Of a stretch of 64,000 nucleotides of DNA, positions 4,907 through 62,900 are shown piece by piece. Below the pieces are notes generated by a model, which saw only the letters and a list, made by a program, of their open reading frames with translations, did no database searches and was not told the DNA's origin. Origin of the DNA: Lepidurus packardi (Eukaryota; Arthropoda; Branchiopoda; Notostraca; Triopsidae); NCBI GenBank assembly GCA_023053545.1, contig JAKZAN010000007.1, forward strand, positions 6,758,001-6,822,000. Reading direction: 5' to 3'. The first letter of the stretch is position 1. Each line of letters begins with the position of its first letter. The position numbers were made by a program, and so were the translations under genes.

Positions 4907-5868
4907 TTTCCATAATATTTTTTTTTGCCGGTAAAGTTCCTCAGTAAAGATCTTTACTGAGGAACTGCGGTGCAATATGTTGGACAGTTGACAAGACTTA
5001 CTGACAACAGAGTTGTTGCCGATTACTTTTATCCCATCGCGGACGACCAACTGCAAGGTGTGCGCAAAGCACGGTAGCCTTTCGATAGATCGAGACTCGA
5101 TAACGTTGCTTAAATAATTTTGGTCAACTTGTTCCAAATCTTGCCACAATTCATTGTCTACTATGGTGTCATTCGACGCAAGGATGAGATCATTTTCACT
5201 ATCGGGTCTGCAAGCTTTCGCTTGTTTAAAAGAAACAAAGCCTTTTTCATATTAGTCGCATTGTCGGTGACTACGAAACTAATTTTTCCATAAAGGCCGT
5301 ACTCAGCAACGACATTTTCGAACGCGTCGGCTATGAGCTCACCAGTGTGAGAGCCTTTGAAGAACTTAAAGGCTATAAGGTGCGAAGCGAAGGAGGCCTC
5401 GCGAAAAGTATGCGCTGTAATGCCGAGAAAAGCGTGCATTCTCCTATCCGTCCAGATATCCATGGTTAAAGCAATAGTGTTTGCTTTGGATAGCTCTTCC
5501 ATAATTTTCTGTGTCTTCTCTGCGGAGATTTTCGGAATAATACTACTGGAGATATACTGTCTGGTAGGGACTGACACCCTGCTTACTGCTATCCCACGCT
5601 TCTAAAAAGGAACGAAACTCGGGACTCTCGACGATGGATATTGGCAAACCACAACCGACGATCGCGTTTTTTTAACAAGCGTCATAACTTTCCTTTGCTC
5701 CTCAGGATTATTTGGCCCGTATTTCAAAGTGCAAGCTCCCATCCCGGTCAGTGTACGCTGATTGGTTTCTGGTTCGGAGATGCGATTTAAGGATTGATAT
5801 TGGTTATACTTTGATTGATGCCTCCTTTGTAGATGTCTAAATAAAAATGGTAGCTTAGAGACAGCCAT
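4877..5868 (-). mobile_element. hAT-superfamily DNA transposon relic (ZBED-like)
   Basis: Read on the minus strand from 5868, the sequence first gives the second half of a BED zinc finger (FRHLQRRHQSKYNQY). It then gives the hAT catalytic region with LTMDIWTDRRMHAFLGITAH and VVTDNATNMKKAL, followed by CFAHTLQLVVRDGIK. This order is that of Activator-like and ZBED-type transposases. The frame changes at least twice (between about 5600 and 5577, and between about 5161 and 5149), and the C-terminal dimerisation half is missing where the palindrome and CATGG repeats begin. It is therefore an inactive fragment. No terminal inverted repeats or 8-bp target duplication could be defined. Confidence 0.9.
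4935..4966. repeat. perfect 32-bp palindrome
   Basis: The half-site AGTTCCTCAGTAAAGA is followed directly by its exact reverse complement, with no spacer. It sits at the broken edge of the hAT relic, exactly where the transposase reading runs out, and so probably marks an inverted rearrangement junction rather than a working regulatory site. Confidence 0.95.
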
Positions 5869-9802: not shown

Positions 9803-12800
9803 TTACCCCATGCTATCGTCGTCCATCCGGCTACGGACTCTTTCCCGCCCTGACACTGACGACACTGCACCTGATGAAGAAGTCGACATTTCGCCGCTAC
9901 GCGGCTCTCGTGATGGCACTGCTGCTGCTACCGTTGTGGAAGTCGAGTTGGGCTTAACCGCAGGCACATTCTGGGCGGCTTCTTGTTGCTCACGCATTTG
10001 ACGCCTTCTTTTCTTGCTCCAGAGCTCATGGCAATCTTGCCAAGTGGGTAGGTTCGGCAGAGGCATACTGCACAGGCACCACACGAACCAGTCATTAGAC
10101 AAAACGTGCAAATTTTTACCCGCCACAAACATTACATGAAAAACTGTAAAACAAGAAATTAACCAAAGGCACTTACGATTCAGGTCTGACGTCCTTTAAC
10201 CATGGGGACTTGAGAGCCTCTTCTGCGGTAATTCGCTTCTCAGGGTCCAATTCCAACATTTTGTCCAACAACTCCAAAGCACTCGACGGCATGAAAGAAA
10301 ACTCTTCCCTTAGCCGTCGACGATACGTTTTCTTGGGCTTGATAGCATTCCACTGCGGCAACTTCACAACCGAAGGCCATACAGCGGGACAAGGGGTACC
10401 ACAAAGCCGCGAAATAAGCTCCAGTTGCATCATTTCCACATTAGCCTATCGTTTCACATGAGAATAGGGAATTGCACGACATTAAGCCAGCCAGTCAACA
10501 GCTTCTTTTCAGACATGCTCGGCTTTTACCTGGAAGATTGGTTTCTTCAAGAATAGCTCGCCTAAAATACAACCGCAAGACCAAACATCAATTGCGGGAC
10601 CATAACGCTCTTCTCCGAGTAATAATTCGGGAGGTCGGTACCACAAGGTTATCACTTTGTTGGTATAAGGACGATCTTTGTCTTCTGAATTATAATATCG
10701 AGCTAAACCAAAATCAGCTAATTTCACTTGACCCCTACGCACATGAAAACAAAGATACACGTAGAATAATTGTTCTCTATCTTTCACAAAATTCCAGGCT
10801 GATTTCTTTCAAATCTGATAACTGCAGCAAAACTGCCCCGAAATCAGAAACTTACTTGTTATTCATAAGAATGTTGCTGCACTTGATATCACGATGAAGA
10901 AAGTTTTTACGGTGACAGTAGTTAAGACCATCCATAAGCTGGCGCATGATCGAGGCATTGTTGCCTTCGTTGAAATCCACCATGCCAGACTCCAACAGAC
11001 CCATTAGGTCATGGTCCATGTACTCAAAAACCAAATAGAATGATCCACGATCCTACAACAGGGATACGTTAAATGTTTAACTCGATCACCTATTACCAAA
11101 TAAATTATTCAATACCATCAGTGAAAAGATCATAATCCTCACGTAGCTTTATAGTTACATAAACAATAACACCCTAAGCTGAACTATTACTTTTTTTTAA
11201 GATTGTTGGAAAAGATAACCCATTTTCAGGAAACCTTTCGTCACTGTAAACCAAATCATATCAAACAAGCTTTTTTTAATGATTGAAGAGAAGGCTTGAT
11301 TTGCTTTTTCCTGTTCTTTTTAAAAAAACCTACCTAATTTGATGACGTTGACTTTGGCAGTAAGACAAGAGAATTTACTGGCCTACGTGAAAAACTTACC
11401 TTGCGGAAATCCAACGCATCTTGTTTGTCCGTCACAATTTCTTTCAGGTTAACAATGTTGCGATGATTTAATTGTCTTAAAATCTTAATTTCCCTCACTG
11501 CCGTAATAGGAAACCCTTCTTTTTCGTTTTCCAAACGCACTTTTTTCAGGGCAACCATTTCTCCTGCACCCACCCCCCAAAAAAAACATGAAAAGAAATG
11601 AATTTGTTACATTCAACGTACACAAGCATCCTATTTTATTTCGTCAAGAAATGAGGATGACGACACGTACCTGAAGCTTTGTCTTTGGCCTTGTACACTT
11701 GCCCATAAGTGCCTTCTCCGATCTGAGCTACCATCTCAAAGACGTCCACGCAACGAACGCCCCAGTTACGAGAATCTGCTATTATAGGTTTCTTCCCATA
11801 GATGACGGGGCGTTTCGTTTTAGGTCTTGGTCCCCTTACACCAGCACTATGCGGTGGTGGTGTCATACCTGATTCATCGTCCGGCGATAACTCTTCTGTC
11901 CCAGGTACCACTAGAAAAAGTTCTAATCATCTTATGTGTCTACTGAAAACGTCGAAAAAGAATGTGGGTTAGAAATGTAATTATTTAGGTACCAGCAGGC
12001 ATAGGCAAATTAAGTATGCTTTTCCCTTTCCTGGGTGTACTTTTGCTCTGTTTTTCCTTCATCGTGTTGTGCAGGGGCTTCGAAATGGGTTTGGGGGACG
12101 TTGGCGGAGATACAATGGATTCCAATCCTTCTTTGCTATTATTGCGAGGTAAAGGAGGCATGGGCAGCTGCAGCCGCTGTTTCTTGGTATTGTTTTGATT
12201 CTGGACCTTGTTCTCGGGAGGTTCAGGTTTGGAGGCACGAGCGCCTGTTGCTATGGGCGTGGGTAACGGTGGGGTAAGGGCTCTTTCCTCCTTTTTTACC
12301 GCATTGCCCGTAGTTTTAGGAGTTGTTACAGTACTGGAATTGCTGGTTTCTTTTTCTCTGGCATCACCATTTTCGTTCTCTTTCATCTGCTCACGTTTAG
12401 CTCGAGCTTTAACCAGCTCAGCGAATAAGCTCGTAGCACTCATTTTGGCTTGAGCGGCCACTTCGCGTGGAATGACAACTTCAGATTTCTTGTCTTCTCT
12501 CTCTTTTGTTTTGGAAGCAATGGGCGATGCGGGTTTCTTGTAAGAAGACTTGTTACTATCACGAGGGCTACGAGACCCAGACTGTGACGGAGAACGACGA
12601 TTCTCCACGCCAGATTTGCGTTTGATTGGTGGGGGAGTCCATCTCGGTGAAACAGAACGTTTTCTAGGTGGCGACCTCCTTGAAGGTTTTGAACTGAAGG
12701 AGAAAAGAAGTTCGCATACAATCATTTTATTTTGAAAGGTATGTGCTAAAGTGAATAGTACCTTGGTGGAGACCGAGTTCGGCTTCGACTCCTGCCTTTA

Positions 12801-13858
12801 CGCTTCCTTTCCTTGCTTCGTGACCTTCGTCGCTTCCTGGCCGGAGACTGTGAACTACGCCGGCTGGACATTTTTTCTACAGGTGGTGAAACCTGGCCAG
12901 GGCTTTCTGGTCGCACAGGCAATTTTTCGTAAGCTTTAGGTGGCAAGGGAGGAGTATGTGGCGATTCTGGTGGACGTGGTGAAGGACTACGGGTCGCAGG
13001 CGACTTGGGTGAATCAGGGGGTGGCGAGTAGTCAGGCGAAGGCGGTTTAGGAGGGTTGCTCGGAGTTTTGGGAGAAGCTGAAGGCGTATGCGAATCTGAT
13101 CGAAAAGCTCGCACAGCTGGTGTTTCTACCACTGGGCGAGATGGAGGCGATTCGGAAGAATATCTCATGGAACTCATGCGACCTGAAGATACTGGACTGG
13201 GGCTTTCAGTCGGTTTGGCTACTTCGTCGTCAGACAAATAGTGTGAGGAACTTGGAGATCGGCGATGCTTCTTGCGTTTCTTGGACCGAGTAGAAGGAGA
13301 TCGCGATTTTTTTCGTCGCTTTTCCTTCTTATGCTTTTTCTCTTTCTTCTTCTTGCTGCTTCGGCTGCGGCCACTGTACGACGGGACAGGAGAGGGTTCT
13401 CTTTCCCGAACGTAACGCGGAGGAGATACTTCCTTAACGTAACGTGCAGGTGTCGGTGTGCTGGCACTACCTTTGTAAGAACGCCGGTAAGGAGGATCTG
13501 GACTGACCTCTCCTTCGCTACGAAAAATATCCTGTTGCTCTGGAACACTTTCGTCGGTAATCTCGCCTTGTTCAGGTTCGGAGAAGTCTTCAGAGCTCAC
13601 ATCATCATACTCAACAACTGCAGTGCTATTATCATCTCCTTTGCTGTTTTCTCCACCATCATTTTCAGAAGACTGTCTAGGTCGTTCATGTCGTCTACGA
13701 TGCGCTTTTTTGGATTTCTTCTTGTGCTTACGATGACGGTCTGCGTCTTCTTCTCCTGAACTTCCCGAGTTATGGCGTACTTTGACAGATCTACTAGGGA
13801 AGGTTTCGGGGGATGCTTCTATTTCTCCTTCTGAATTGTCGCTTCCATGTGCAGGCAT
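9803..13858 (-). CDS. Cdk12: CDK12 (CDK12/13-type RNA polymerase II CTD kinase)
   Basis: Eight exons (13858-12762, 12693-11993, 11910-11671, 11563-11400, 11052-10856, 10734-10530, 10445-10177, 10067-9803) join in phase to 1045 residues. With cyclin K this kinase phosphorylates the RNA polymerase II C-terminal repeat in the nucleus to support elongation. Residues 1 to about 600 are low-complexity: acidic/Ser-rich, then Lys/Arg-Ser-rich and proline-rich tracts typical of speckle proteins. The kinase domain runs from about 657 to 950. It has the glycine loop [13 protein letters not shown], the lysine in MVALKKVRL, the cyclin-facing helix PITAVRE (PITAIRE in vertebrates), [16 protein letters not shown] and the activation threonine in [16 protein letters not shown]. 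After it comes the CDK12-specific tail with [18 protein letters not shown]. It is shorter than the human protein because the disordered ends are reduced. Identification is secure; separating CDK12 from CDK13 is not meaningful outside vertebrates. Confidence 0.97.
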
Positions 13859-14995
13859 GTTAAAATAGAAATAATTTCACCATAGCCCTGAAAAAGACGA
13901 CACTAATGAAACCTGTATAGAAAAATCTGTTTTGTGTAAACTAGTTTGAAGGGACCACCCCAACTGTAACCTTCTTTGCACGAATAGCAGTAATGAAACC
14001 GTTACTAAACTTTCCAGACACACGCAAAAAAATACTTCATTCTCACAGTAATGATAAAGCTATTTATCACAAGCACTAAATACGTGGAATTTTACTTACT
14101 GTTTTGCTGTTCCAAGGCCGGAGAAGGAAGGACAACAAAACCTAGACCGGCAAAATGCTAGTATAAACAAGGTAGCGATTTAACGTATATACCTGATCAA
14201 GTAATGCCCAATTATCACTTGTCTTGAATCTTCCTGAGCGACAATGCAATATAGTATAGTTTTTATAGCAGATGACAGTTATTTTGCATGATAAACATGG
14301 TTTTAAGTGGTAGGAATTTCCTACTCGGAGAAAAGCAGCCAGCCCAATCGTTCCAATCGATATCTAGGAACTATCGGTTGCCCCAAGACGATAGTAAACC
14401 AGGAGCGCGTATTGTACGAATAATTTATTGGTTTTCTTGGATTTACGTAACACCAAGCATTAATAAGTTGATATGTACAATAAAACAAGAAATAAATGGA
14501 ATATAGTTCATTCTTATTTTTCTTATCGTTACTATAGACCATGGCCCCATTTCAAAGGTGCTAATTCACGTGTAAAAGAAATCATTACAGCCCCACTTTT
14601 GGTACAGGGGAATGTCGCGGTAAAACAATATTTTCTGTGGAAAGACGGTTGTCAAAATCTGGCAACTTAACACAGAAATATAATAAAAAAAACAGGACCT
14701 TAAGCTGCAGGAATAAATTCGTATTGACTTTAAAAGTAGTATGCACGATTCGTCTTACAACTTCAGAATTTAAGTGGGAAGGAAATAGCAAATTCAGTCA
14801 CAGGAGTGTCCATAGCAAATAAAAATGTTTTAATAATAAGTGAAGATACGGATTTACGTGGCCAATTTTACGCAAATATTGCGAAAGCGTGACCCACTTA
14901 GATAAAACTTTCCGTCACTTGACTAGCCTACCTATACCTGTACCCTCATTTAAGAGATCAAAACCAGTAAAAATCCTCTTCGAAAAATTTGTCCG
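13859..14995. other. spacer between kazrin 3' end and CDK12 start
   Basis: About 1.1 kb containing the CDK12 promoter and leader and the kazrin 3' untranslated region. No TATA box or other motif stands out. AT-rich, with only short open frames. A minus-strand AATAAA at 14424-14429 could end kazrin transcripts. Confidence 0.5.
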
Positions 14996-17900
14996 CTACA
15001 CTCGTGTTACAGTAATAGTTTCGATATCACCACTGGATTTTACTCGTCGATGTCGTTCGACGGTATTGGTATCACCCAAAGTGCTTGGTGCAGCTACGGA
15101 GGCAGGGCGATCGAGACCACTCACAGGTTCAGAGTGCTCGTCCAAAGAGTTGGAAGCGGCAAACAAATTCTTGGCATGTTTCGCTAAATCCGCCTTAGCT
15201 TTAATTCCCAAAGCTCGGCTTAACGAACTCTACAAGCGGATGAAAAAGACACATTATTATACCGTTGCATATCCATTTGACAACAGCAACAAAAAGGAAT
15301 TGGCTCTGTTTAGTTTCATACTTCTACGTTTGAACATACACTCTCTACATTTTTAGTGACTGAACCAAAAAAAAAACAGGTTCTTTGTGTTTCAATACAT
15401 TTCGCGCACAAAGGTGAACTAAGTAAATATCAAATACATCTGATGTTAACAAGCTACCTGAGAATTTCGCCAGGTTGCAAACTTGTTAAAATACAAAAAT
15501 ATTACTTTTTTATACACAAATTTTGACTAAGAACAGCAATTTTACCCGCATGGATATGCGTTGTACGCTACTCGCTTCGTTTGGTTTAGATACTTCTACC
15601 CGGTCGCTTAGCCCTCCCGTGTAAGAGCGGGAAAAACTGCGTCCTAATGATCCTCCTCCAGCCAGTTTTTCGGCACGTCGACGCTCTAGGCGCGCTTGCC
15701 GGGCTCGATGCTCATACCGAGCTCTGAGTGTTACAGAAAAATGATAATTTCAAGCGATTACCTAATTTGTTGCCATTTGTACCTGGGCACTTGAATTAAC
15801 GTGTCTAATTCAGTTTGCAGGTGGCGTCGGACAATATTCTTTGAGCTCGGAATACCCAAAGCCGTTGCCATGGTCTCGGCAGTGAATGACGGTTCCAGGA
15901 CAACTAAAGCGCCATGTACACCACTATCTAAGAAATTGAACAAGCTATCAATGCGAACTTTAAAAAACAAAACAAAAAAACACTGTTGAAGCTTAAATAC
16001 CTTTTAAGTTCTCCGCATATTCAACCAAATCTATGCTGCGCACCCACTGGATAAATCTTTGATTGGTCCAGATAATAGGATCGGAGTCAATTGACTCGCA
16101 CTGTATTCTTCGTTCAGCAATGGCTTGTCGATCGTATTTCATCATCCGCAAGAATGTAATAGCTTGGACAATAGATGCTTGATGAAACTTCCGGGACACT
16201 CCCAAATACTTTTCCAATTCCCTTTTGGTCAGCGTGTCCAATAACCGAGCGTCCATTAGACATGCCGTAAAACTCTCCGTATACTGCCCAATTAATTACA
16301 AAAAGCTTCCGTTAATTTCCTTAAATAAAAACAAAATAATCAACAACGTACCTGGGACAATCCCAAATCAGGTAACCATTCACTGGTAACCCACGTACTT
16401 CCCAGCACTCCGAGTAACGGATATCGCACCAGTGCGGGATTCCTATGCTCCTCAATAGCCAACCGTAGCTTTTTCCTATGTAATGGATGCACCAAGCCTA
16501 ATCCCGTTTCCATTTCAGTGTCAGAGAGCTCCAGCAGAATCTGCATACAAGATCGATTTATGATGGAAACAAAAAGACGCGAGCCAAAGATGGAAAATAT
16601 TTACTTTGCCACTTTTGACATTCTCGGCGCATCTTTGTCCACATTGAGGTAAGCCTAATCCGACTTCCATCCAAGCCTGGACATGCCCAGCTTTCCAACG
16701 ATCCATCGTTATGTGTTGTGCTTCATCTAGGAGCCGAAGACGCTCAGTATACGAGTCTTCCGTTAAGGGCGTGGCACATAATGATTCTCTGGGGGACCAA
16801 CTCCTACGACCTTCAGGAGAACCTGTACCACCATAAAACAAATCCGCTGAATCGACACATTCTGATTTGTTTTTCAATACCAAACAACAAAAGAAAGATG
16901 TTTTTTTTACTGCTGTTAAACACGTCGAGATCCAACGCACGACGCTGTTTGCGTGCAAAAACACGGGAAATGCTTCCCCACGGACCGCCTCTGGAAATGG
17001 AACCTTTTTGGGATGACGAGGTTTTACGGTTATTTCTCGAATGCCCTTCCCCATTCGATATTTGTTCCACTGACCTACAACATTTCGGTTCAAAAACACT
17101 TTGTTTATATAAACTTATATTTTCTTAGCAAACAGTCAAAATTTTTACCTGGAAAATGCATTCACTACGGAATCTTCGCCGTTCTTGGCTTGAGTTCCAC
17201 AAGGGGTTAAGCAATGAGCGTCACTTTCCACTAGGGAAGAAAAAAGATAATAATACACATACAACTACAGCTTTAGTTACTAACTCCCAGGAGTAAGTTT
17301 AGGAAGAAAAAGGCAGGGAAAATAATAAGACTGAACCTACGTAGATGAGCACGGAAAGTGTGGGAAGAGGTTAGAGAGATTGAATCCGAATCGCTGCCTC
17401 GATCTACCAGGATGTAAGGACCTACAACAGAAGCAAGAAACGACAAGAGTGAAAAAAGAGGCACCAAAATACAGGAGATAAGCTCTAAAAAAACTGCACT
17501 AGTGTCATTCTACCGAAAAGCTATAGAGTAACCCGATATTATTAACTACGAGCATGCATTATTGTTAGATTGGGTCACACTAAATACCTAACCAGAGCGA
17601 AAATTTCCAAGTTTACCTTCGTTAGAGTCAGACGAAGGGTGAGGCTGGGGTGACAACCTGATTTCCGTGGCTTCGGAATTGACTAATGTGCTGGATAACG
17701 ACGATAGCGTATCTTGCCGACTCAGCAAAAGCTCTTGACTGACGATGGAAGGTCGTGCACTGCTGTAGCTTCTCATCTACAAACCCCCAAAGACATGACA
17801 GGATTACGTATGGGTTTACAAATTAGGGAAACCACACGTCAAAAGCGGCATCCCTTACTTCAGCTAGTTCTTCTTGAAGCTGCCGAATCTGCGTATCTTT

Positions 17901-41300: not shown

Positions 41301-44300
41301 TTGAACAAACTGTCTTTTAGGATGTTACACTTTTGTACGGACCAAACTTTGCGATGGGGATGAATGGTACATGTGTCCTGCGAACAATAGGAAAAGAATT
41401 TTAAGCTTGTTGTTCTGCCGAACATATTCGTTGGCTTACAATGACGTCCGTGGACTCGGGACAATACTTCTGTAATCGCCAAGAATCGCCGAAGATTTTG
41501 GGAGTGACTTCGCTCAGTCCTCCGGAGGGCGGTTGGAAATCGTCATTTTCGTTGTCGTTGTAATTGCCACACAAGCCTCGCACCTGTTGTACAGAAAGTA
41601 AAGAAGACAGAATGTAAACATTTCATAGAAATTTTCCTTATCTAAGGGCCAAGGAAAAGGCTTACTCTTCCTTTCCATCTGGGGTCCAAACGCAAGTAAA
41701 CGCGGGTTCCGTAATCCCATTGCAATACCAAACCAAGATCTTCCACTTCAACGTAGATGAAGAGACCAGAATCGCGTGTAAGGATCCTTTCGCTGTATTT
41801 ACCCATAGTTTGCTTCTTGTGCCGTGTTAGGATGATATTTTCCTCCGTTTTGCCACCGGGGAGACGCAGAGTCACGGATTTAGAACACGCAACACCACTG
41901 GAGCCACAAGGCACGTTCTATTATATAATTCATGCGTGAGTGTAAGTGAAATTGTTAGGAAAACGTAGACTTGGTTCAGAAACTTTCTTTACCTGGATTG
42001 CTACTTCGAACTTTTCATGAGCTTCCACACTATGACCTTTGGCAAACATGTAGTCACAATTGCCCTGGAAGTCGTACATTTTTCCATCAAAAGTCTTGAA
42101 ATGGGACTCGCCCCAATTCGAGCACAACGCCGGGCATTTCAGCTTGGTGCAGTCCCAAACGCCCGAGTGGCACGTACTGTTGATTTTGACAAGATACGAA
42201 ATGAAAAAAGATATACACAAATATATTTTAAGTTTATACCAGGTGTTGCAATCTTCCACCATTTTCTCGCCTTCCGCGTAACTTTTGCCGCCATGGTGAC
42301 AAGGACATTCCGTGGGTTTGATACAGCGTTTGGACTCCAAATCCAGTACGAAGCCTTTCTTGCACTGACAACCCGGTCGGCACACGGAAGGCTTCGCAGC
42401 AGATGATGTATGCATGCTCTACTCATGAAGCATTAACAAATACAGCAAATATTAGGAGACTAAGAAGAAGACGTGTGTAATGTGTAACTACTTTGCATGT
42501 GATAGGCATTTCCGGTTCGCAGTCGGTGTACTCTTCGTTTGCGGAAGACTTGCAGGCTAGAAGTGGAGACGAAGTGCTGGAAAATTGTTGCTGCTCGTCA
42601 GGAGAAGCACGTCGGCAAGACCATAACGCGTTAATACAGGTACTGAAATGAAGTCAAATTAGGCAACTTGCTTTGTAAGTGGGTTGCAAAGCTAGAGAAA
42701 TCGTAAGGGATTTACCATAATTCCGGTTCTCTGGCGCCAGGTCGAAGTTCTTTGTGGCCAGGCTTGTACTCTTGTCCTTTATGGATACAAGAGCACTGAT
42801 GGACTGGAATGCATTGGCCTTTACTATCAAGTGTGAATCCCTCGGGACAGTTGCATCCTTCGACGCACTTTCGGCGGCATTTCGGATTCGTAGCAATGTC
42901 AATACACGTTCTCGTGCAGGAATTGCCACACACTTGATAAACTTGACCACCAGTGCAGTGAACACCTGCCTCGCAACGAACCATGCGTTAAAATAGGCAG
43001 TTAACTTCTCAACTCAAAATTGCTTACCGCATTCGCGAACTTCAGGAATCCAGTCAACAAGGACGCCACGGTGGGTACATTCCTTCGCATAAACAGCCAA
43101 GGCGGGGCACAAGCATTCGCTTAATTTACCCGCACAAGAGCACACGTCGTACAAGCAATCTTTGTAATACTGTTCTGGATCAACCACCCAATGGCAATCT
43201 TAGCAAAGAAAAAATAACAAGATTACCAACAGATTTTTTTTTTTAATTTTTTTTTTTACTTGCAAATAAGCTGCTCTTGATTTTAGAACAATAACGTTCC
43301 GCTTCTGCTTTGTTATGGATATTAACATCACAAGGGTGATTTGCTTGCTCCACAGGAATATCGGTGCATATTTCTTTTGTCTTCCATTTATTGGCAAACG
43401 GCTGAACGGATTGCTCCAGGTCACCTTCAGGTGTCATCAGATCATCACGTTGGTTAGAATTAAACGTGCCACATAAGCCCTAGAACCGGAATTAGGAACG
43501 ATTTTAGTATTTATTTTAGAACTTTTTTATTTTTTATTTTAGTAATTTATTTTAGTATTATCCAAAGAGCAAATGTTTTCGAGTTTTTCCTTTATACCTG
43601 GGTTTTGCCAAAGAAAGAGGCTGGGGCATCAATGTAAACCCGGGACAAACCATCCCACCAAATTTCGAGTCCATTTGGGAGATCCACTGATGATAGCATA
43701 GAAATACACATTACGTGAACCTCAAAGCTTATTTTTAACTTTTACTTTCCACTTTTACTTCTAGTGGGCAAACAAAGCCCCAAGAACTTACCTGCCAAGA
43801 AGACCGAGGAAGCCAAGCGAATGTAAATTCCATCTACCCAGATGGGTAGGTGTGTTTTTTCTTCACCGTCAAGGACGACCTCGCGATTTTGTTTCAGTTT
43901 GATGACCATTCCATTGATGCGGATAGTGACTGACTTAGTGCAGGATGGGAACGCTGAAATTGTATGAGCTGGAAAATTCATGCCCTATAACAGAAAAACA
44001 ATACCTTTACTTTAAAAAGCTACCATTAAGCCAACCGCATAGATAATCAAGTCCAACTGAGCTTCCAAGCACAAAGGGCTCTCAACTCCAGCTTCGTTTA
44101 TGTAAAGCTCATTGAACAGTAATCGTCATGTTGGACGTTCTATTATGTCCTTCAGCTTAACGTACATTGTAAGCAACTATGATATGAACAAAAATACAAT
44201 CTTGGCACTAAAAATTAGAAGGATCATTCCAGCTAACATGACCGAGAATACATGCTAAGGTACGCATATGACCTCCGTAAGCTGCTTCTGGCCCCTCAAG

Positions 44301-47300
44301 CAATGGAGCAGTCATGGAAACGACCTCCTTGTGCTAATACTCGGCTTAATCCTACTTTTTTAACGACATTAAACTTATGCATATGCTTGCGGTTAAGCGC
44401 GACCTACATAAGGAGGATGCGTGCAATTGGCTTCTCGCAATTACTCGTAGAACTTCAGCATAAAAGGTTACAAAGGTCACATGCATTACGGAAAATGTAA
44501 ACCTTCCATCGCCTCCACACGCGCCCATAGGCAGGTGCTCGGCGCGTAACGACAATTCCATTTCACTGCACGGAACATTAGATGGAATTTATTGCCTCTT
44601 TCTGAGCATTTGTGTGCCGGAAATAAATGGAAGTCTTGAACTTTAACTATTACTATTAGGTGGATAAAAACTAAATAATTTATTTTGACAAACGAGAGCC
44701 AGACCGCCTCCTTGAACGAAACCAAACTTCTTCGTTTTCTCGCTATTCAGTTCAATAACCGTGTGAATATATTTCGACATCAAGGCACATGTGAGAACAC
44801 TACCCTTCTTTGCTAGAGTAACAGACCTAGAAACGCTGCTTTAGTTAACGCCTTTCACACTTCGTCAGGTGTGTGGCAAAGTAAGAGTACGCTGATAATG
44901 AAGAGAAGACAGTGCAGGTGGAAATAGAACTCAGTGGTTCCTTGGCCGCCAACAGGCATACATCCGAGACAAGCTTCTTAAGACTTTCTTAAGAACTCGT
45001 TCAAGGCGGACTTGGTTCTTCAAGGGAACCCGTAATTAGTTAGAAAAGAACTGGAACTGTGTTAGAGTGACTCACGTGAAGTAGTTGCATGTTCATGCAT
45101 TAAGAACGGCGTTTAAAGAGTGACAGCATGCCGTAATGTATTCCCAAACTCAGCGCTGTTAAAACATTAACCGACCTTGTCAAGGATGCGCATGTGAATA
45201 CGTCAAGGCAAGGTTGTTGTGCAATTCATCGCAATTCTAGCGAAACTGGACAGGGTGTAAGAAGTGTAAAGTGTCAAAATTCGGGCTAAATTATGGCATT
45301 TTCACGTAACGAGCGTACCGTGATTCTAACCGTGGGTCGAGTGACTCATACGATTAAGGCTGACACATTGTTACGCATTCCTGCGCAGGCTTCTTTATCG
45401 CAATGGATTCAACAGTCGCGTCAAACATCAGGTAAAAGATAAAGCTCGAAATTTGTTGGTTTAATAAACAAAAACACTTCGGGTATATAAGAAAAAAGTG
45501 TTGGAAGCCTCAAACACGCTAGACTTGCCTTAGAATTACTCATTTATGCATCCGGTACGAGGAAAAGTTGGAGTTAATTAAAACGAGGAACATAGTCGGG
45601 AATTCCGTATACACCCCAGTGCATTAATATGTTTCACTCTCTTTGGCAACAAGCCAAAACGGAACAAGCGAAACTGACAAAAAAGCGATCATGAAGCATC
45701 AATGCAAGGCATGACACACCTTCCTTATTTTCCAAACAATACAAAAGCAAGGAACCGGAAAGTTATATGATACCAACGTGTCTCTGAAACAACAAACTCC
45801 CAAGGTTAAATTGTAACAACCCCTTGTTAAAAAATCACTGCTGGGAACGATATTCGTAAACCTCGCCAAGAAAGTAAAAGACACTTAATGTTAATAAGAA
45901 AAAAAAAAGATCGAATTAGGATCTCCCGCTTCCCACTGATTCTTATTCCTTACAAGTTAGACGAAAAAAGCTTGTGAATGGGTAATCAGGACTACATAAT
46001 CTAAATCCTTGAATAGTGAAATTCTGTAGCCCAAATACACTCCACTTCAAAGAAAAGAAAGCATCACGTTTCCCCATGTACTGTACGGCCATTTGCGTCA
46101 ACAGTAAGAGTGAAAATTTTTTAGCCTTGTATGAATTTCGCTTTCTTTGGAGTAGAATTATTCCTAACTTCCATGCTTTTCATAACGTTCGAAACCGAAA
46201 AGTGCCTAAGCACTGAATACGTACTGATTACAGCATCGCTTACCCGTTCGGTAAAAAAAAAAAAAAAAAAAAAAAAGTTAGAGCCATATGGTGGTTATTT
46301 TTTCAAGAAAATGTGTACTGTAAATTCAGTGAATCCCTTTTCTTATTTACTCCGAGAAAACCAGGCATTGTAACGCATATCGTAGCAATAAAGAGAAACT
46401 ACAATGCCTGCGGTTGAGCCACCGAGCTTGCGGTAATACTGGGGGTCAAATTATCAAAAGTCGGCCGACCCCTTAATTTCCGCTCAGCACAGAGTTTTAG
46501 AACCCAAAAGCAACAATTACATGCCGAAACTCCCCAGGAGCTAATTTTCCTGACAATTATTGCTACCATTATTCCATTGATAATGGTGTGGTATGTATGT
46601 TTAGGCAAAAACGGTTAGTAGGAATCGTAATTAGCCTAACAACCTGCAAGAAACATGGCGGACCTGTACTACAGGAGTTTTTGCGCTCATGAAAGCATGC
46701 CAAAATGAAAAGAATGCCTGCGTTTTTGACTCCAAAAGGCTCATAAAGGACAGGAACTGTGTCTTGATAGGTGAGATCTGGACTTCGTGCGACTTGTTGA
46801 ATGTTGTTAAGCATATGGCAAAGGCAAGGAAGTGAAACTCGACAACCATGTGGTAGACTGATATTATACTTCTTCTTGATAGTTTTTTGTTGTTGTTCTT
46901 GTTGTGGGTATTAACTAAGACTTGTAACGAGAGCTTAGGCTAAATAGTTTCCCACGTCAAATTGGTCTCTAACCCTGACTGATCTTTTGTCCTGGAATTA
47001 CACAAGTCACACAAATTTCTCCTGCTCAACGAGTCTACCTGCCTCTCTACATTTTCACTTTTATACCTAGGTTATTGCCAGTTGGAGCATCGGGACGGTC
47101 ACGCATTTGCCTACATTTGGCATTATTTGGCTACGGGAGATTTGGTTTATCCTCTGCACGAAGGTTTCCAACGTGTTGACGTCGTGCTTCAGGTAAATAA
47201 TACCTCTGACCTACCAACAAGCCTTAATCGAGTTTAGATGCATTCTGTTCTACGAAACATGAGACTGGGGAAAAAAGAGAAATCGAAACTTGGGACGCTG

Positions 47301-50300
47301 GTTTTCCCACCGCCTTTTATCCAAGTGGATCACCACTTATTATCCAGATCTAAAAGGCCGGTATCACTTTTCTCCCAAAAGGTTGAAACAAAAACAGCGA
47401 GAAAGTCTTACAAGGGAGGGTTTCAAAGTCTATACCTTATTTCATCGTTAATCCAAGGATTAACTCCAAGTTCAAATTTCATGATTTTCCCCTAGAATCT
47501 TCCAGTAAACTATGAGTATCGAAACAGAGTCATGTTCGATACTCATACTTGGGTTTGGGCTAGCTCCAGATACACTTGTGTTCAATCTGTCTATTATCCA
47601 AGAATACCGAAAACCTCGCGCGAATATTCGCCGAGTCCAGTTTCATTTAGTACCTTGAAAAATAGGAGGTGAAAGATAGTTAAGCAGGAGTGCTATTAGT
47701 TGAAAGGCAATTGCGGGTGACTAGCTATCCCGGTTAAAGATGCTGACTCACGTAAAAATGTGAGTGAAACTTCTAGATGCCGAAAAATGGGCCGCAATTT
47801 CCACAAAATCATATAAGAAAGCACAGCACTATCTTGTAAGGGTAACAAATGACACGACTGCAATAATACCGTGCATCTTCACCGCAGAAAATACACGTAA
47901 GAAGACCAAAATAAAAACTACCATGATATCTGCGAAATCTAAATTACTTTTTCTAACTATTGCTACCGGTTTCCTTCACTCAAAAGTTTTACAATTACAC
48001 AACAGATAAATGTAAATTTGTTGCAACTTATACCATTTACAATACTTTATGTGTCCTTGTACAAATATAAAATTCTCATTGTATATTTGGAAATATTTTA
48101 TGCTTAAAAAGTACCAAGTACACCTACACTTATTTTGCACCGTACGAAGCACCGGAAATAAGCCCTATTAATCCTAGGCTTTCTTGGGGTTCTTTCCTAC
48201 ATTCTTGCCGCTCTTGTCATGTTTAGAGCGCCAGAGAATCCTACTTGATCTCGACCTCCTGAGGGGTCAGGAGAAGAGCCCCAGCCAAATGGATTATAAT
48301 TGGAATGTTTGCTTCTCTTTCTCTTGCAAAGGAATTATCATCTTGTGGGCTGGCTGACGACGTCATGCGGATGGCTCAGGAAGAGAGCAAGAAGAAACGC
48401 CGAGAAACGACCACCTCGGCTATTGTTATTACAGATAATTCCCCATCGAAACATCTTCAATCGGAGCACCACCAGCGACGCATGAGTGACACAGATGCCT
48501 TAAACCTACAGCGCTCGTGGGCTGATCTGTCTTCAGATCATGACCACGCATCTCGCCCTGCTACGTGTCGGAAGAATGTCAGCAACACCAATGCCGGCAA
48601 ACGGCACTCTTACAGCGCCAGTACAACTGATTTGGGTTGCCATCTCCAGGACAAAGTATCCCAGACAGGAGTGAGGGCTTTGCCTTTTGGGCACACTTTA
48701 GCTCCTAGTTCTTCCGAATCCCGGATTTCAAGCTTGAAATCGGAATTACCAGAGCGATTCCTATCTTTACTCAAGCGCTACCTCAATTTGAAAAGCTCGT
48801 CAAATGGATCTGCTAAAGTCAGATCGCTTGTCCTGACCAATAATCACGCAAATCATAACACCAGTCTTGTTGCTGCACCGGCTACTAGAAGTTTAGGAGT
48901 TTTCAGACCTGCCACGAGCCATGGCGCTACGCTGATCTTACTGGTTACCGCAGAAGACTTGACCGTGTTTGGCCATCGTTTGGATCTAGAACTAACTTTC
49001 CCTGATGTGCCTTTGTTGCCTTTACGCACTACTTCGGTGCTCATTAACTGTCAAATTTTCATCGAGAACCCGGCCAACAAGGACAACAAAAAATGTAACA
49101 CCACTTCGGAATGGGCGCTGGCTATTTACCACAAACAAGTTTCAAAAGCCGGCTTCCATCTAACGGTTAATTCCGAATGGCGAGAACACGGTTCGACACA
49201 AAAACTCCAGCAATGGATTTGCCATAAGAGCACCAGAAAAGGACAAAACAGGAACTCGAACAGCAACGTTCGGAAAAAGTCCGTGTTGACCAAGTTTTTT
49301 CATAAAAACGAATCTTAAAAAGTATTGAAGTTTAAAATCATATAATATATATATATGTATATACATATATCCCTCCAACTCGGCAAAAAATTTAACTTAG
49401 AGGCTCTGTAGATTTGGATTTACAAAATAAAGATGCTTGAATAATAATTTGGTAGCTCTTAATTTCTCTTAATTCCACAAACTTCTTTAATTCTCTCATG
49501 AATTAATCCCCAATATTCTTCTGATAATTTTTTTTCGAAATTAGGTAATCTCTAAATTTCTTCCCGATAAATTGTCGAATTTCAAATCTCAAAAGTAGTC
49601 TTGTCTCACAAAAAGTGAAGGAATAGTGTTAATGAGATGCAATACGATCCAGTAACCGGCAGTAGTAATAGACGTATAGACCTTTCAACTGCCAAAGTCA
49701 GCCCAAGGTAACTAATCCATCTTTCTCAAACCCATCAGTCAGTCTCTTTTAGACTGAATTTAGGCCCTGGCATTTCAATAACAAACGCTTAGAAAAACTG
49801 TCAAGAGTTGTTTCTCTTGCATAAAGATTAGGCCAAGAACGATTTCCTCTCGATAAAAAAAAATACGAAAAACTAATCACGTACTCTCGTGGAAAAGGTA
49901 AACAGTTATGAGCAAACTAACCTCGGATATGGCTCCGGCGCAGGCTACGTTTTCTCCTTCGATGCTGTAGTCGTCTCCTTTCATGAGATAATAGGAGCAC
50001 TTTCCCATAAAATCAAAGTGTCTGCCATCGAAAGTGGTATAATGAGGATCACCACGGGCAGCACATCGAGAACCGCACTGTACCAACGAACACTGCCATT
50101 CACCATTTAAACAAGTGCTAAAACCAAAAGAAATCAGGGGTGAGGTTAAACTCGAAGTGCAAAACCAAGATAATTCAGAGAAAAAACTATAAAGGAAAGT
50201 AAAAAGTAGGTAGGTTACCAAGTATTGCAGTCATTGGGAACTTGTTCCCCAGATTTGTACGTTTTGCCGTGCAAGAAACATGGGCATTGAGACCGTGGGA

Positions 50301-54590: not shown

Positions 54591-55279
54591 TTTTGAAATA
54601 ATTTATGGACACAATCTAGGAGCGCATTTGTTAGAGCTATTCGGCACTATAACGACCACAAAATCTGGGTAAGGGAACCCGAAATTTTTTCCAAAGGAAG
54701 TGTTGAACGTCGAAAACCGACTGAAGTCCGGCAGTACACGTTTGCTCACATATACGCGTTTTTTCTTCATCATTACTTGACGCAACTAACTCCCACCACA
54801 GGAAAAGGAAGCGATAACAAGATGTTATACCCAGCTTCTAATTAATTAGTATAACCTTTCAATAGTCCGCGGCAAAAAAAAGCTAACAAAAGTAAAAAGT
54901 GTTTCTGCAAATGCTAATGCGATAGCTTTAACCTGAATAATTGAAAGTCGGTATTCGTAGAAAGTATTTCACAATGACTCAAAAGCTTTGGCATGGCATT
55001 TCTGCAGCATTTACAAGCTCTAAGATTGCTCGTCAAATTCGAATCAGCCGCTCGAATCCTGGTTATCGACGTAAAGAGGCCGAAAGCCTACAACGTACGT
55101 GCTGGTATAGGGCTTCGCTTGGTCTTTTCTAAACCAATCTTCTGCGCAGCATCTCCTTGCAGCATCTCTTCTTCGCATGCTTCAACTTCTTAGTCTGGAT
55201 CGTGTGCTTCGACCAGCCACAAGTCTACAATTAAGAATACACCATATTTGTTCGGGTATTTGCAAGAAATGTGACCATT
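54591..55279. promoter_or_regulatory. 689-bp divergent intergenic region
   Basis: Lies between the start codons of hemocytin (leftward) and the first nicotinic subunit (rightward), so it must hold both promoters and leaders. I see no clear TATA box or named binding site. Two plus-strand open frames at 54.94-55.19 kb look like chance. Confidence 0.5.
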
Positions 55280-58063
55280 ATGAATTGGCGGCTATTGACT
55301 TATTGCTGCTTGGTGGCAAACTTCGTTGGCCTTTCAAGTAACTTATCGTTAAACTGCCCTTCTAAATCGACGCTCTGCTTTGAAAACCTGAAGGGTGGAT
55401 TCGCAAATCCTGACGCAAAACGACTCTACGATGATTTGTTGGCCAACGGTTACAACAGACTTATAAGACCTGTAAACAATAACACCGAACGTGTTATTGT
55501 CTGGTTAGGTCTTCGTCTTTCCCAGCTTATTGAAGTGGTAAGTTAAACAAAACTTCTCCATTACTAAGTTCCCTCTCACGCCCTGATTTTCTCATGCTGC
55601 TCGTCCTTCCGCAAATAGAACCTCAAAAGCCAAGTTATGACTACGAATCTCTGGGTAGAGCAGGTAAACTTTTCAGAATTCAGATTCTCTAATCAGATAT
55701 GATTGGAAGCTTGAGCTTGCTATATATACAAATGAACACAGAAATGGTTTGATTATCGATTGACGTGGGACCCGGCGGATTACGGTGGAGTCCAGATGCT
55801 GTACATGCCTTCTGAAAATCTCTGGTTGCCCGATATCGTTCTTTATAACAAGTAAACGGCAATCGCGCCACTCTGGCTCGAGATTTTCTCTGTCTTATCT
55901 ATATGTTTATTGCTAACCAGTGCGGATGGAAACTACGAAGTGACGCTCATGACCAAAGCAACTGTGTTCTACACCGGAGAAGTGCAATGGAATCCGCCTG
56001 CTATTTACAAGTCGTCATGCGAGATGGATGTCGAATGGTCTCTTAGCTGAATGTGTTCTCTGTCCAACACTTTCCTAGTAACGTGTATCTTTCTTCCCAG
56101 GTTCCCCTTTGACAAACAATCTTGCTTGATGAAATTTGGCTCATGGACTTACGACGGCTTTCAAGTAACTTTAGTTTCTGTTATAATTCGTTGGCAAAGG
56201 AACGAAAATTCCAATGAATTAAAATTCGCAATTAATTGTATGCGTAATTAGGTAGACCTCCATCATATGAAACAAACTGCTGGCAGTAATGTTGTACCTG
56301 TGGGTATTGATTTGTCAGAATTTTACTTATCAGTGGAATGGGTAAAGGATTTAAGCTACCTTCCTTTTCTAAACTGACTTAACACTAGTTCAATGAGCTT
56401 TTAAAATTATTTAGGATATTCTGGAGGTCCCTGCTCATAAAAACGAAGAATACTTGCCCTGCTGTGAAGAGCCGTTTCCAGGTACATAAAAACTCGGTGA
56501 GGAAACTTAATAGCTCGATTCGTTTCTTAGATATAACGTTTAACATAACTATGAGGCGCAAAACGCTATTTTACACCGTAAATCTCATCATCCCATGTGT
56601 GGGAATTACGTTCTTAACGATCCTTGTCTTTTACTTACCATCAGACTCAGGCGAAAAGGTACGTGTATAACATGAATAGCAAACTTAGAAGAATGGTGAT
56701 CGAACTCACTCTGGACCATGGTTATTTCTAGGTTTCCCTGTGCGTGAACATCCTCGTGTCGTTAACCGTCTTCTTCTTGTTGTTGGCCGAAATTATTCCT
56801 CCTACCTCCTTAGCTGTGCCTTTGTTGGGGAAGTACTTGCTTTTCACCATGATCCTCGTTACGGTCTCCATCGGCGTCACGGTACTTAGGATACTTTTCA
56901 GTTGACTCTAGTATACAAACATAAAATCTTTTATAATAGGTTTTCGTGCTCAACGTTCACTTCAGGTATACATGAAGACACGCGATCTTTGTCTTACAGT
57001 ACGTCGTTTCTAGATCTCCAGCAACACATCACATGCCACCATGGGTAAAACGAGTTTTTACAGAAATCATGCCACGTGTACTGCTCATTAGACGTCCGGC
57101 GTACTCTTGCAAAGGGAAATGCGGAGGCGAAAAAAAACGCAAGAATTTCTACAACGGATTAGACTACAGGTACACATTCACAGCTTCCATTGATACAAGC
57201 TAATACAAATACTTGAAAATCGGGGATATAAAGTATAGACCACTCTTTGCAGGGATGTCTTCCGTGATAGAGATTTATACGGCGAGCCAATGAGTCCTAG
57301 CGACTTTACAACCAGTTTCGAGCCCAGGTCTTTTGTGTACTCGAGTTATACGTCGCATGAGTCGCAGCAGCCGCTTTTTCCAAGTAATATCTTTTGAAAG
57401 GAGAGAATTCCATTAGGTTTTGATCATTTATGTGTCGCATAAATTCTCCTGGCTGGCAGCCATTGGATCCCTGACGTACGGCGATGACGGAGAAATTCCG
57501 GAAAATATCCGTAGTGCTTTGAGAGGAGTACTGTTTATCGCTCAGCACATAAAAAGCGCCGACGAAGACCAAGAGGTGAAACTTAAGTTTATTGCGGAGC
57601 ACTACTTCCAATGCCTTTTTAAGAAGAAAGAGGAAGCGGGAAGGAAAATGTAAAAGCATGTACTGTACATACTATATGGTCCGAATTTTAGCGCTATGCT
57701 TTTAATTCCTTTTCGACACGTCCCGTTTCCTCTTTTTGATTAATACCTTGCATATATTCGCGTAACCCAAACTCGCCAAATCCTCATCTTTGCTAAAGAC
57801 AATAATGTTTTGCTCATCCCAATCTTTCTTTTTTCTAGGTCATAGAAGACTGGAAATTCGTAGCTATGGTTCTAGATCGGACATTTCTTTGGATCTTTAC
57901 GCTTGCCTGTCTGATTGGGACAGCTGCTATCATCTTCCAAGCACCTTCGCTTTACGACAGCACTATCCCAATAGATAAGCAGCTATCATTGATTGGTTAT
58001 AACAGCTACAGTGTTAAGCCAGAGAATCTTACTAACATAATTCGTGCAATCTATGTACCATAG
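55280..58063 (+). CDS. nicotinic acetylcholine receptor subunit, alpha type (alpha8/beta1-like)
   Basis: Fourteen exons (55280-55537, 55619-55663, 55742-55851, 55921-56037, 56101-56164, 56252-56341, 56415-56481, 56531-56658, 56732-56881, 56940-56965, 57014-57169, 57253-57383, 57460-57575, 57839-58063) join in phase to 560 residues. It is a pentameric cation channel subunit of the synaptic membrane. Seen: signal peptide, LWVEQEWF-like loop (here [11 protein letters not shown]), loop A region [10 protein letters not shown], Cys-loop [15 protein letters not shown], and the vicinal cysteine pair in [12 protein letters not shown], which defines an alpha subunit. Then M1-M3 with the pore helix [20 protein letters not shown], a basic M3-M4 loop and M4 ([18 protein letters not shown]). 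The M2-M3 wording resembles the insect beta1/alpha8 group. The ATG at 55280 is chosen because it starts the signal peptide. Confidence 0.96.
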
Positions 58064-59977: not shown

Positions 59978-62900
59978 TCAGAAGTCCGTGTCACCTAGTA
60001 GTTGCTTGGCGACAACGGAAATTTCCCGGTCGATGGCTCTACTATCATCGTATAGTGCTGGGGCTTCCATTAGTATCATAACTGTCCCAACCAAAGAGGT
60101 GATGGTGAACACCCACAAAAATAATCGGTCCAAGACCATAGCCACAAAGCCCCAATCTTGATCTTCCTACGCAAATTATAAATAATTCCTAGTTAATCCG
60201 TGAACACCCTAACCCGAAAACACAATTAAACGCCTTACTTGATTATACAAGTCCTCACGTCGCATGTGGTTTCTAATAAACTCAATATCTCGCATGGCTT
60301 TCTCTAATTCGTAAGGGTATCTCTTCCTGCGACGAATGTCCGGTGGAGGTGGAGGTGGTCCAACTTCAGGAGGAGGGGGTGCTGGCGGAATTTGAGACGG
60401 AGGCTTCGGGGGAGGAGGGATATTGAAGTTGTTCAAGTGGATTACTTCGCAAAGCAGTTGGCTTCCATATTGTAATCTTCGACTCCAACGTCTGCCGTCA
60501 CGCGCATGTTGCATACGACGACGAGCAATAATCTGCATAAGCAAAGACACCGCGTAATGAATATTTAGTTCCAAGACGACTCAGCCACCACACCAACCAT
60601 GACATGAGCTGTCCAACCGAATATTCTATACGGTATAAGAAAAGGAATCGAGTTGTAGAGCGTAAATAAGCAAGCATAAAATAAATCATAAGAAAGGAAA
60701 CACAACAACGCGACAATAACAAGTTCCCAAACAAACGTTTATCTACGCAACAAAACGAGGATACGCCGAGAAAATGCGAGTTGCCTCCTTTTTTGCATCG
60801 GGACGAAGCGAATGCTAATGGAACGAGCTTGTCTTAAGATGTTCGTTTATCATCCCAATGTAAGGGACTCATCAGCCTGACGAGCTGCCACGAAATTGTT
60901 TCATTCTGCAGATATTCTCGCCGCTTATATTACCAAAGGACTGGAGCAGTCCCGCCTCTACGGCACTCTACGGCTAAGGGCCGCGAGCAGCACCCCATTA
61001 GAAATTAACCACTTGGGATTTCCGAGTCCCAGGCAAGTAACTTCTTTCGTCAACAGTCAATAGCTTAAAACTGAGTAATTTCAGTTCCACGAACTATGCT
61101 AGCAAACCGCGGCCCTGGCAAAGCTACAACTAACGAAGAAAAGAAAACAACTGCAAATGGGTCGAATTAGTGCAGACCATTAGTTCTCTTTTACTCTTTG
61201 TAACTTTCACTGTCTTTCATAAAGCATGCTTCTCATCTTTGAAGAAAAAAAAATAGTTTTCTTTTCATTTTTCTTTTGCGGCTAACCTTTGTTGCTGTGT
61301 TTCTATCTACGTCTGTGTGTGTCTTGGCTTTGATACGCTATGAATCAAGGTTTAATTTTCCGGAAGAGAAAAAAGGTTAATAGGAAGGGCTGAACTTGGC
61401 TACGGTAAAGTTACAATATTAAGCCAACGTGATTAAATATAAAAAAAGAAAAAGTTTTAGGGGAACTGAGAAGTAGAAAACCAAGGCCAAACGAGACACA
61501 GTCCGTAAAAAAAGAGATGCTAATTAGTGTTCCAAGTTCATGTCTTTTGCTCCCCCTCCAAAAAACAAAAAGGGCCATTAAGTTCTTACTTAAAATTGCA
61601 AACACAAACAAAACTCAATAAAATTAAACACGATACCTTCAATCGTTGCTCGACTTCCTCAAAGACTCTTTTCGGGACTCGCATGAGCAGGAGTTTGGGC
61701 AATCGTTGAATAAAAACCCGACGTACCCATGGTGCCATCTTGTGAGTACTAGGTTTTCGATAATGCAAGTTTAGAATGCAAATGGTAATCACAACACTCA
61801 AGCCCACCAAGACCTGCAAGAGCATATATTGTGTCAACTATTTAAGCAGCTCCAAAACTTCAATTAAAATGTTCTACCATCGTAAAAAGTAAGTATTTGC
61901 CCAGCAGCGGAACAGCCAATGACGTGGAGGGAATGATCTCGGAAATGAGGAGGAAAAACATCGTCTGGCTCAATAAAATCGAGATACATAACGCCACTTT
62001 TTCTCCAGAGTCTGCGGGCAGGTAAAAGACCAAAACAGAGAGGCAAGAAATTCCCACGCAGGGGATAATGAGATTGACGGTGTAAAACAGGGTCTTCCGC
62101 CGAAGCGTGATATTGAAGAATATATCTGGGTAAGGTTCCAGACAGCAGGGATAAAACTTGACGTGTTTCTCAGCAGGTACTGCCAATACATCCTAATCAA
62201 ATTTTTCTTTTGCTTTAGTCTTTTAGTTTTATTTATTAGCGTTTTTTGGTGCCCAGCCGGCCAATTCGGCTTAAGCAAATAGGGACTTAAACTCCATGCT
62301 CTTACCCATTCGACGCTAGGATAGTATTCCCTTAAATCGATTCCGATTTTTACCAAATTAGAGCCAGGCTCTTGATTGATATGTTTGAGATCAATCTAAG
62401 GAAACCAAAGACAACAAAAACGTATTTAATGCGTTGTGTGTTGCACATTTCAACACTTAAATAATACAGCATTTAAAATTCGCTCGACGGGTCGCAAAGA
62501 GTCAAAACGAAAAACCTTATCACTAGAAGACGCCCAGACAACCTATCACATCCACATGCGACACCCTGGCACCGACGTCCGGATATCTTATTATACTGAA
62601 GAACCCCACACATCTTCTGTTTCTGACATGGTGTTGTGTTATGCTACTCTTCTTCCTCCACATTTGTATTATATTGCGAGCTTGTCGGTAGTCAATGAGC
62701 AACCAAGTGAAATTAGTTTTCTTTTCAGAAAACGAATTGAAATTGGATGTAGTTCTGTTTACGCCATCCGCCATCTTCGGATATAACTGCGTGTGATAGA
62801 TACGTAAAACTAACAACGATGTGTGTGGTTAACGTACACGCGAGAGGCATAGAGGAACTTCGAGATTCTCGCCAAGCGAAATATACAAAACATACAAGGA

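What the first reader, a model, noticed from the sequence alone, without database searches (positions are those of the whole stretch)
43985..49921. Complete BTB/KCTD-like gene nested antisense inside a VWD-splitting intron of hemocytin
The host intron is 5.9 kb where neighbouring introns are mostly under 100 bp, it interrupts a single VWD domain, and it contains a three-exon gene with its own start, phase-consistent splices, stop and AATAAA. Either the gene was inserted and the intron grew around it, or the intron was retained to keep the gene. Convergent overlapping transcription could make the two genes interfere.
Basis: partly seen in the sequence, partly recalled or inferred. Interest (0 to 1): 0.72.

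Follow-up and report, generated by a model that had tools for sequence, protein, structure and literature searches.

The report
Gene nested antisense in hemocytin intron
A small, diverged BTB-type gene appears to sit on the opposite strand inside one long intron of a hemocytin-type (blood-cell clotting) gene of an arthropod-like animal, an arrangement of a kind that is common in animals and so ordinary.

Summary
A VWD domain of a hemocytin-type gene (minus strand) is split by a 5,937-bp phase-0 intron (43985-49921). Spliced exactly, the domain scores 117.3 bits over profile positions 1-155 of 156, against 41.8 and 18.9 bits for the two flanking exon pieces, so the host is one gene. Inside the intron, on the plus strand, lies a three-exon gene of 415 codons (45293-45431, 47071-47192, 48332-49318) with in-phase GT-AG junctions and AATAAA at 49426. 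Its third exon lies in a 351-codon open frame (largest in 200 simulated introns: 232). Its N-terminus is a remote BTB/T1 domain: clear against three genomic relatives (25.6 bits; best of 1000 shuffles 6.9), but below Pfam's curated cut-off. The rest matches nothing, and a KCTD8/12/16 H1 domain was tested and not found, so 'KCTD-like' is a fold-level label only. No close paralogue and no second copy of the intron DNA was found in the genome, which speaks against a recent insertion. Opposite-strand nested genes are common in animals. Which came first, gene or long intron, and whether the two interfere, could not be tested: no related arthropod genome and no RNA were available.

The parts
43985..49921 (-). 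long phase-0 intron of the host hemocytin-type gene (5,937 bp), splitting its VWD domain
   Evidence: splice sites and frame; joined domain 117.3 bits; chosen by the exon-chaining script
49922..50117 (-). host exon: first part of the VWD domain and what precedes it
   Evidence: VWD 41.8 bits, profile 1-33 (64-residue piece); frame
43792..43984 (-). host exon: middle of the VWD domain
   Evidence: VWD 18.9 bits alone, profile 54-100 (65-residue piece); frame
43598..43686 (-). host exon: VWD domain continued
   Evidence: frame and splice sites; part of the joined match
45293..45431 (+). nested gene, coding exon 1: ATG and start of the BTB domain
   Evidence: 7.1 bits alone against the three-sequence BTB profile; not supported by codon choice
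47071..47192 (+). nested gene, coding exon 2: core of the BTB domain
   Evidence: 15.7 bits alone against the BTB profile
48332..49318 (+). nested gene, coding exon 3 with stop codon: end of the BTB domain, polar linker, C-terminal part without known family
   Evidence: 351-codon open frame 48263-49315; codon choice
49426..49431 (+). AATAAA polyadenylation signal, 107 bp after the nested stop codon

Best explanation
An ordinary opposite-strand nested gene pair. The host is a hemocytin (hemolectin)-type protein whose pre-mRNA is spliced across a 5.9-kb intron. Inside the intron a separate protein-coding gene is transcribed the other way from its own promoter, somewhere upstream of 45293, and polyadenylated soon after 49426, about 490 bp short of the host's splice donor. 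It makes a 415-residue protein with an N-terminal, strongly diverged BTB/T1 domain, which probably lets the protein assemble into oligomers, and a long remainder of unknown binding role. The nest is probably not a fresh insertion. Most likely the gene came to lie in, or moved into, this intron long ago and has stayed there more or less neutrally, because splicing removes the intron whatever it contains; the two genes probably avoid being highly active in the same cells. Shown by sequence: both gene structures, strands, continuity of the host domain, lack of a second copy. Inferred: transcription, promoter, oligomerisation, age, expression avoidance.
For: Continuous VWD across the intron. Host domains over their cut-offs: VWD, C8, TIL, CBM_14, Mucin2_WxxW and F5/8 type C. 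Nested open frame far longer than chance, with codon choice and frame preference for exon 3. Exons 47-49% GC against 39% in the nested introns. BTB match 25.6 bits against at most 6.9 in 1000 shuffles and hhalign E 2.7e-6, probability 88.6%. Best other place in the genome for the nested protein has E 1.6; the intron DNA matches only itself (that search skips simple repeats and very common words). Nested genes in introns, mostly on the opposite strand, are common in animals: passages of PMC3786989, introductions of PMC12274878 and PMC8467205.
Against: No RNA evidence. BTB_2 is below Pfam's curated cut-off. Codon choice does not support exons 1 and 2, and under two models that also count amino-acid composition the nested coding sequence scores negative (-34.3 bits; -29.8 bits). 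The fold of the C-terminal part failed (mean pLDDT 33.6). No related species could be compared.
Confidence: 0.85

Rival explanations
1. Recent insertion: a copy of a BTB gene (retrocopy or transposed duplicate) landed in a short hemocytin intron and made it long.
For: The intron is 50 to 59 times as long as its nearest neighbours of 101-118 bp; internal genes are reported to arise often by duplication into introns (introduction of PMC8467205).
Against: The nested gene has two introns of 1,639 and 1,139 bp, so it is not a plain retrocopy; no parent copy found in the genome; no second copy of the intron DNA and only weak repeat pairs inside it.
Confidence: 0.1
2. The host is really two transcription units, and the BTB gene lies between them.
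For: The gap is by far the longest in my host model.
Against: The two sides join in phase into one nearly complete VWD domain of 117.3 bits; the flanking pieces alone cover only profile positions 1-33 and 54-100; consensus-like donor and acceptor.
Confidence: 0.04
3. Exon 3 is coding, but the upstream exons are mis-assigned, so the protein is not a BTB protein.
For: Exons 1 and 2 are short and not supported by codon choice; the Pfam BTB_2 match is below cut-off; the start of exon 3 alone adds almost nothing (0.3 bits).
Against: The profile match grows with exons in order (exon 1 7.1, exon 2 15.7, both 20.7, with the start of exon 3 25.6 bits; 18.8 with exons 1 and 2 swapped), and 0 of 1000 shuffles come near it; phases fit.
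Confidence: 0.08
4. Regulatory nest: transcription of the nested gene switches the host hemocytin off or makes a short host transcript, as a functional device.
For: Precedent in worm: ceh-10 induces a short form of its host polq-1 (abstract and discussion of PMC12274878).
Against: No expression data here. Nesting is currently considered neutral according to PMC3786989 (passages); in Drosophila expression divergence is read as avoidance of interference (introduction of PMC8467205).
Confidence: 0.07

Closest known systems
Opposite-strand nested genes of Drosophila and C. elegans (for example 2mit in tim2; ceh-10 in polq-1)
   Same: Protein-coding gene in an intron of a longer gene, opposite orientation.
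   Different: Another gene pair. The nested gene has two introns, whereas internal genes are said to be typically intronless (introduction of PMC8467205); 2mit has one intron, so this is a difference of degree.
Arthropod hemocytin / hemolectin
   Same: VWD, C8, TIL, F5/8 type C and chitin-binding domains; that these mark hemocytin is recalled.
   Different: Contains a 5.9-kb intron with a nested gene; whether other hemocytins lack it was not tested.
BTB/T1 proteins: Kv channel T1 domain and KCTD family
   Same: About 90 N-terminal residues align along nearly the whole BTB_2 profile and along a T1/BTB profile of this genome; nearest solved chains are Kv4.2 at E 0.04 to 0.4.
   Different: Below Pfam's curated cut-off; no H1 domain of KCTD8/12/16; no Pfam match over its cut-off in the remaining 300 or so residues.

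Membership tests
Opposite-strand nested gene | whole coding sequence lies inside one intron of another gene | tested here: met
   45293-49318 inside 43985-49921
Opposite-strand nested gene | opposite orientation to the host | tested here: met
   host minus, nested plus
Opposite-strand nested gene | host exons on both sides belong to one protein | tested here: met
   VWD 117.3 bits across the junction
Opposite-strand nested gene | independent transcript of the nested gene | not testable with these tools
   no RNA data; only splice sites and AATAAA
Hemocytin / hemolectin | VWD-C8-TIL units | tested here: met
Hemocytin / hemolectin | F5/8 type C (discoidin) domains | tested here: met
   33.4 and 37.1 bits, cut-off 28.2; the first is two pieces that I joined without checking the splice sites, and its second piece alone gives 26.5 bits, below cut-off; two further candidate pieces gave nothing
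Hemocytin / hemolectin | orthology by tree | not tested
   no arthropod proteomes at hand
Pfam BTB_2 (PF02214) | score at or above the curated cut-off of 21.4 bits | tested here: not met
   13.7 bits whole protein, 17.2 bits residues 1-111
BTB/T1 fold, wider sense | significant profile similarity along the domain | tested here: met
   25.6 bits, 0 of 1000 shuffles as high; hhalign E 2.7e-6; the profile holds three sequences of this genome that I picked
KCTD8/12/16 | C-terminal H1 domain | tested here: not met
   -0.3 bits, 183 of 1000 shuffles as high; hhalign E 0.064, probability 0.9%; the only match of PF23110 in the genome search is elsewhere, C6:9111934-9112296

The most novel reading that the evidence does not exclude
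A lineage-specific, fast-evolving BTB gene is locked inside a blood-cell coagulation gene, and the nest works as a one-or-the-other switch: transcription of the BTB gene stops or truncates hemocytin in the same cell, so selection keeps both the long intron and the gene.
Probability: 0.05. Interest if true: 0.5.

Novelty: new member of a known kind. Interest (0 to 1): 0.2.

Why it matters
It adds a well-defined case of a multi-exon gene nested antisense in a gene whose other introns are mostly short, and gives exact junctions that RNA data can test. It also warns annotators that the BTB domain of the nested gene falls below the usual cut-off and could be missed. If the nest proves conserved in relatives, the pair would be a usable test of whether nesting is neutral or regulatory.

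Tried and rejected
KCTD8/12/16 H1 domain in the C-terminal part: suggested by eye from a remembered KCTD12 sequence; rejected because 183 of 1000 shuffles score as high, hhalign gives E 0.064 with probability 0.9%, and Pfam does not list it (where the only hit of that part was a sub-threshold Xylo_C, 14.1 bits against 25).

Fold of 152 C-terminal residues without an alignment: mean pLDDT 33.6, useless; no fold search was run on it.

Retrocopy or recent duplicate: no second copy. RNA genes in the window: 0 at gathering score. Relatives of exon 3 in viral and prokaryote contigs: 0 of 13 and 0 of 73 pattern matches confirmed; these collections are viral, bacterial and archaeal, so this says little. 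The sigma-70 promoter scan does not apply to this organism and was not used.

Two codon models that also count amino-acid composition gave negative sums for the nested gene; I think this reflects small, biased training sets, and a synonymous-codon version supports exon 3 only. All are reported.

Longest host introns: I first took the 2,097- and 1,200-bp introns of my model for artefacts of missed exons, because open frames in them look like F5/8 C and VWD pieces. A Pfam scan of three such frames did not confirm it, so this stays an impression. Two host candidates of 10 (a sushi-like piece and an F5/8-like piece), and two of 10 proteins (a supposed C-terminal knot and a Cys-rich piece), gave no family.

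Organism: 79 exact hits of (TTAGG)6, some at the very end of contig C3 and most in C86, point to an arthropod; that TTAGG is the arthropod telomere is recalled. The species was not identified.

Print: hemocytin and KCTD occur together in 1 held paper, a stink bug transcriptome seen only as a search listing. The listings (20 of 603 papers; 15 of 28; 15 of 254) show no title about a nested gene in hemocytin. Only these searches of an open-access library were made; I claim nothing wider.
Full report
What is there. The window (64 kb, no N) lies on a 10.7-Mb contig of a 108.6-Mb genome with (TTAGG)n arrays, one of them at the very end of a 12.9-Mb contig, which fits an arthropod (recalled). A large minus-strand gene runs from about 53.3 kb to below 29 kb. 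Pieces of it hit VWD, C8, TIL, CBM_14, Mucin2_WxxW and EGF_2 and F5/8 type C over their cut-offs, and VWC and Ldl_recept_a below theirs; EGF_2 falls just below its cut-off in a longer query. That is a hemocytin/hemolectin-type protein; the name is by domain content (recalled), not by a tree.

The host intron. Exons 49922-50117, 43792-43984, 43598-43686 and the one starting at 43479 read in one frame. With the 5,937-bp intron and the two short ones removed, the VWD domain scores 117.3 bits over profile positions 1-155 of 156; the two exon pieces beside the long intron score 41.8 and 18.9 bits. A simple exon-chaining script, whose codon model was trained in part on these very exons, chose the same long junction in spite of a length penalty, but missed the next exon at 43598-43686. 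The nearest introns are 101, 105 and 118 bp. In that rough model 19 of 44 introns are under 100 bp and 27 of 44 at most 135 bp; the next longest are 2,097 and 1,200 bp. I suspect missed exons inside those two, but Pfam did not confirm it. Two other VWD domains of the gene also look split by phase-0 introns (after AIQ at 41993, read by eye; after DFQ at 30185), so a domain-splitting intron is not unusual here. The loop between the two cysteines that flank the long intron is 20 residues, against 6 and 7 in those two domains.

The nested gene. On the plus strand: ATG 45293 (in-frame stop at 45287), exon 1 to 45431, exon 2 47071-47192, exon 3 48332-49318, AATAAA at 49426; donors CAG|GTAAAA and CAG|GTAAAT, acceptors CCTAG|G and CAAAG|G; 415 codons. 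The introns (1,639 and 1,139 bp) are 39% GC, the exons 47-49%. The 351-codon open frame that holds exon 3 exceeds all of 200 simulated introns (median 136, maximum 232). By synonymous codon choice exon 3 scores +8.8, best of six frames, and 0 of 2000 overlapping windows of the non-coding part of the intron are as high; with a further training gene it is +5.7, again 0 of 2000. Exons 1 and 2 are not supported by this measure, and models that also count amino-acid composition give negative sums for the whole gene.

The protein. Residues 10-94 align to BTB_2 along positions 1-86 of 94 with 17.2 bits when the N-terminal part is scanned alone, and 13.7 bits for the whole protein; both are below the cut-off of 21.4. 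Against a profile of three T1/BTB sequences of the same genome it scores 25.6 bits, while the best of 1000 shuffles reaches 6.9, and hhalign gives E 2.7e-6. Swapping exons 1 and 2 lowers the score to 18.8. The closest solved chains are Kv4.2 at E 0.04 to 0.4, and the closest of the genome's open frames that I compared is a Kv-like one (L002, 28% over 88 residues). So the N-terminus is a diverged BTB/T1 domain. The rest is a polar linker and a C-terminal part with no family. A KCTD8/12/16 H1 domain was tested and rejected. The genome does have a clear KCTD8/12/16 gene elsewhere (C6:9111493-9112296, H1 192.2 bits); it matches the nested protein only weakly (30% over 99 residues, E 0.13 in a small set), so the nested gene is not its recent copy.

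Origin. A search of the whole genome with the protein found the three exons themselves and one chance-level place (E 1.6); the intron DNA matches only itself, in a search that skips simple repeats and very common words. With two introns of its own, no parent copy and no repeat found, a recent retrocopy or duplication is unlikely. Age beyond this cannot be given, since no related genome was available.

Comparison with what is known. Nested genes, often opposite in strand, make up about 6% of the fly gene complement (PMC3786989, passages), and worm has 566 further opposite nested protein-coding pairs besides the one studied (PMC12274878, introduction). Internal genes are said to be typically short and intronless, to arise often by duplication, and in Drosophila to diverge fast after nesting, which is read as avoidance of interference (PMC8467205, introduction). 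About 10% of predicted genes overlap by position in two mosquitoes (PMC3689595, abstract). The present case fits this class; having introns, and lying in a gene whose other introns are mostly short, is a modest variation. One nested gene in worm induces a short form of its host (PMC12274878, abstract and discussion), so an effect on hemocytin is possible but not shown.

Verdict.

Noticed in passing
window 49922-50117 and 43792-43984: The VWD domain with the long intron has a 20-residue loop between the two cysteines around the splice junction, against 6 and 7 residues in two sister VWD domains of the gene; perhaps sequence gained at the intron edges.
   Followed up: partly
window 55235-56667 (+) and 61863-62192 (-): Pieces of two neurotransmitter-gated ion channel genes in opposite orientation beside the host gene: ligand-binding 27.0 bits and transmembrane 37.7 bits on plus, transmembrane 109.2 bits on minus. 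Nicotinic-receptor-like is recalled.
   Followed up: partly
window 5164-5601 (-): Open frame that looks like a hAT/ZBED-type transposase (DUF659 29.4 bits, below its cut-off of 34.7; transposase name recalled).
   Followed up: partly
window 10512-13876 (-): Protein kinase piece (74.9 bits) with long RS-rich open frames upstream of it, perhaps a CDK12-like kinase (name recalled); the frame at 11639-11926 matches a kinase only weakly (14.2 bits, below cut-off).
   Followed up: partly
window 15996-16295 (-): SAM-domain gene piece (51.0 bits), perhaps liprin-like (name recalled).
   Followed up: partly
G000:C6:9111493-9112296 (L006, L013): The genome's only match to the KCTD8/12/16 H1 family in our search: BTB and H1 in a single open frame of 325 residues, on the same contig about 2.3 Mb away.
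   Followed up: yes
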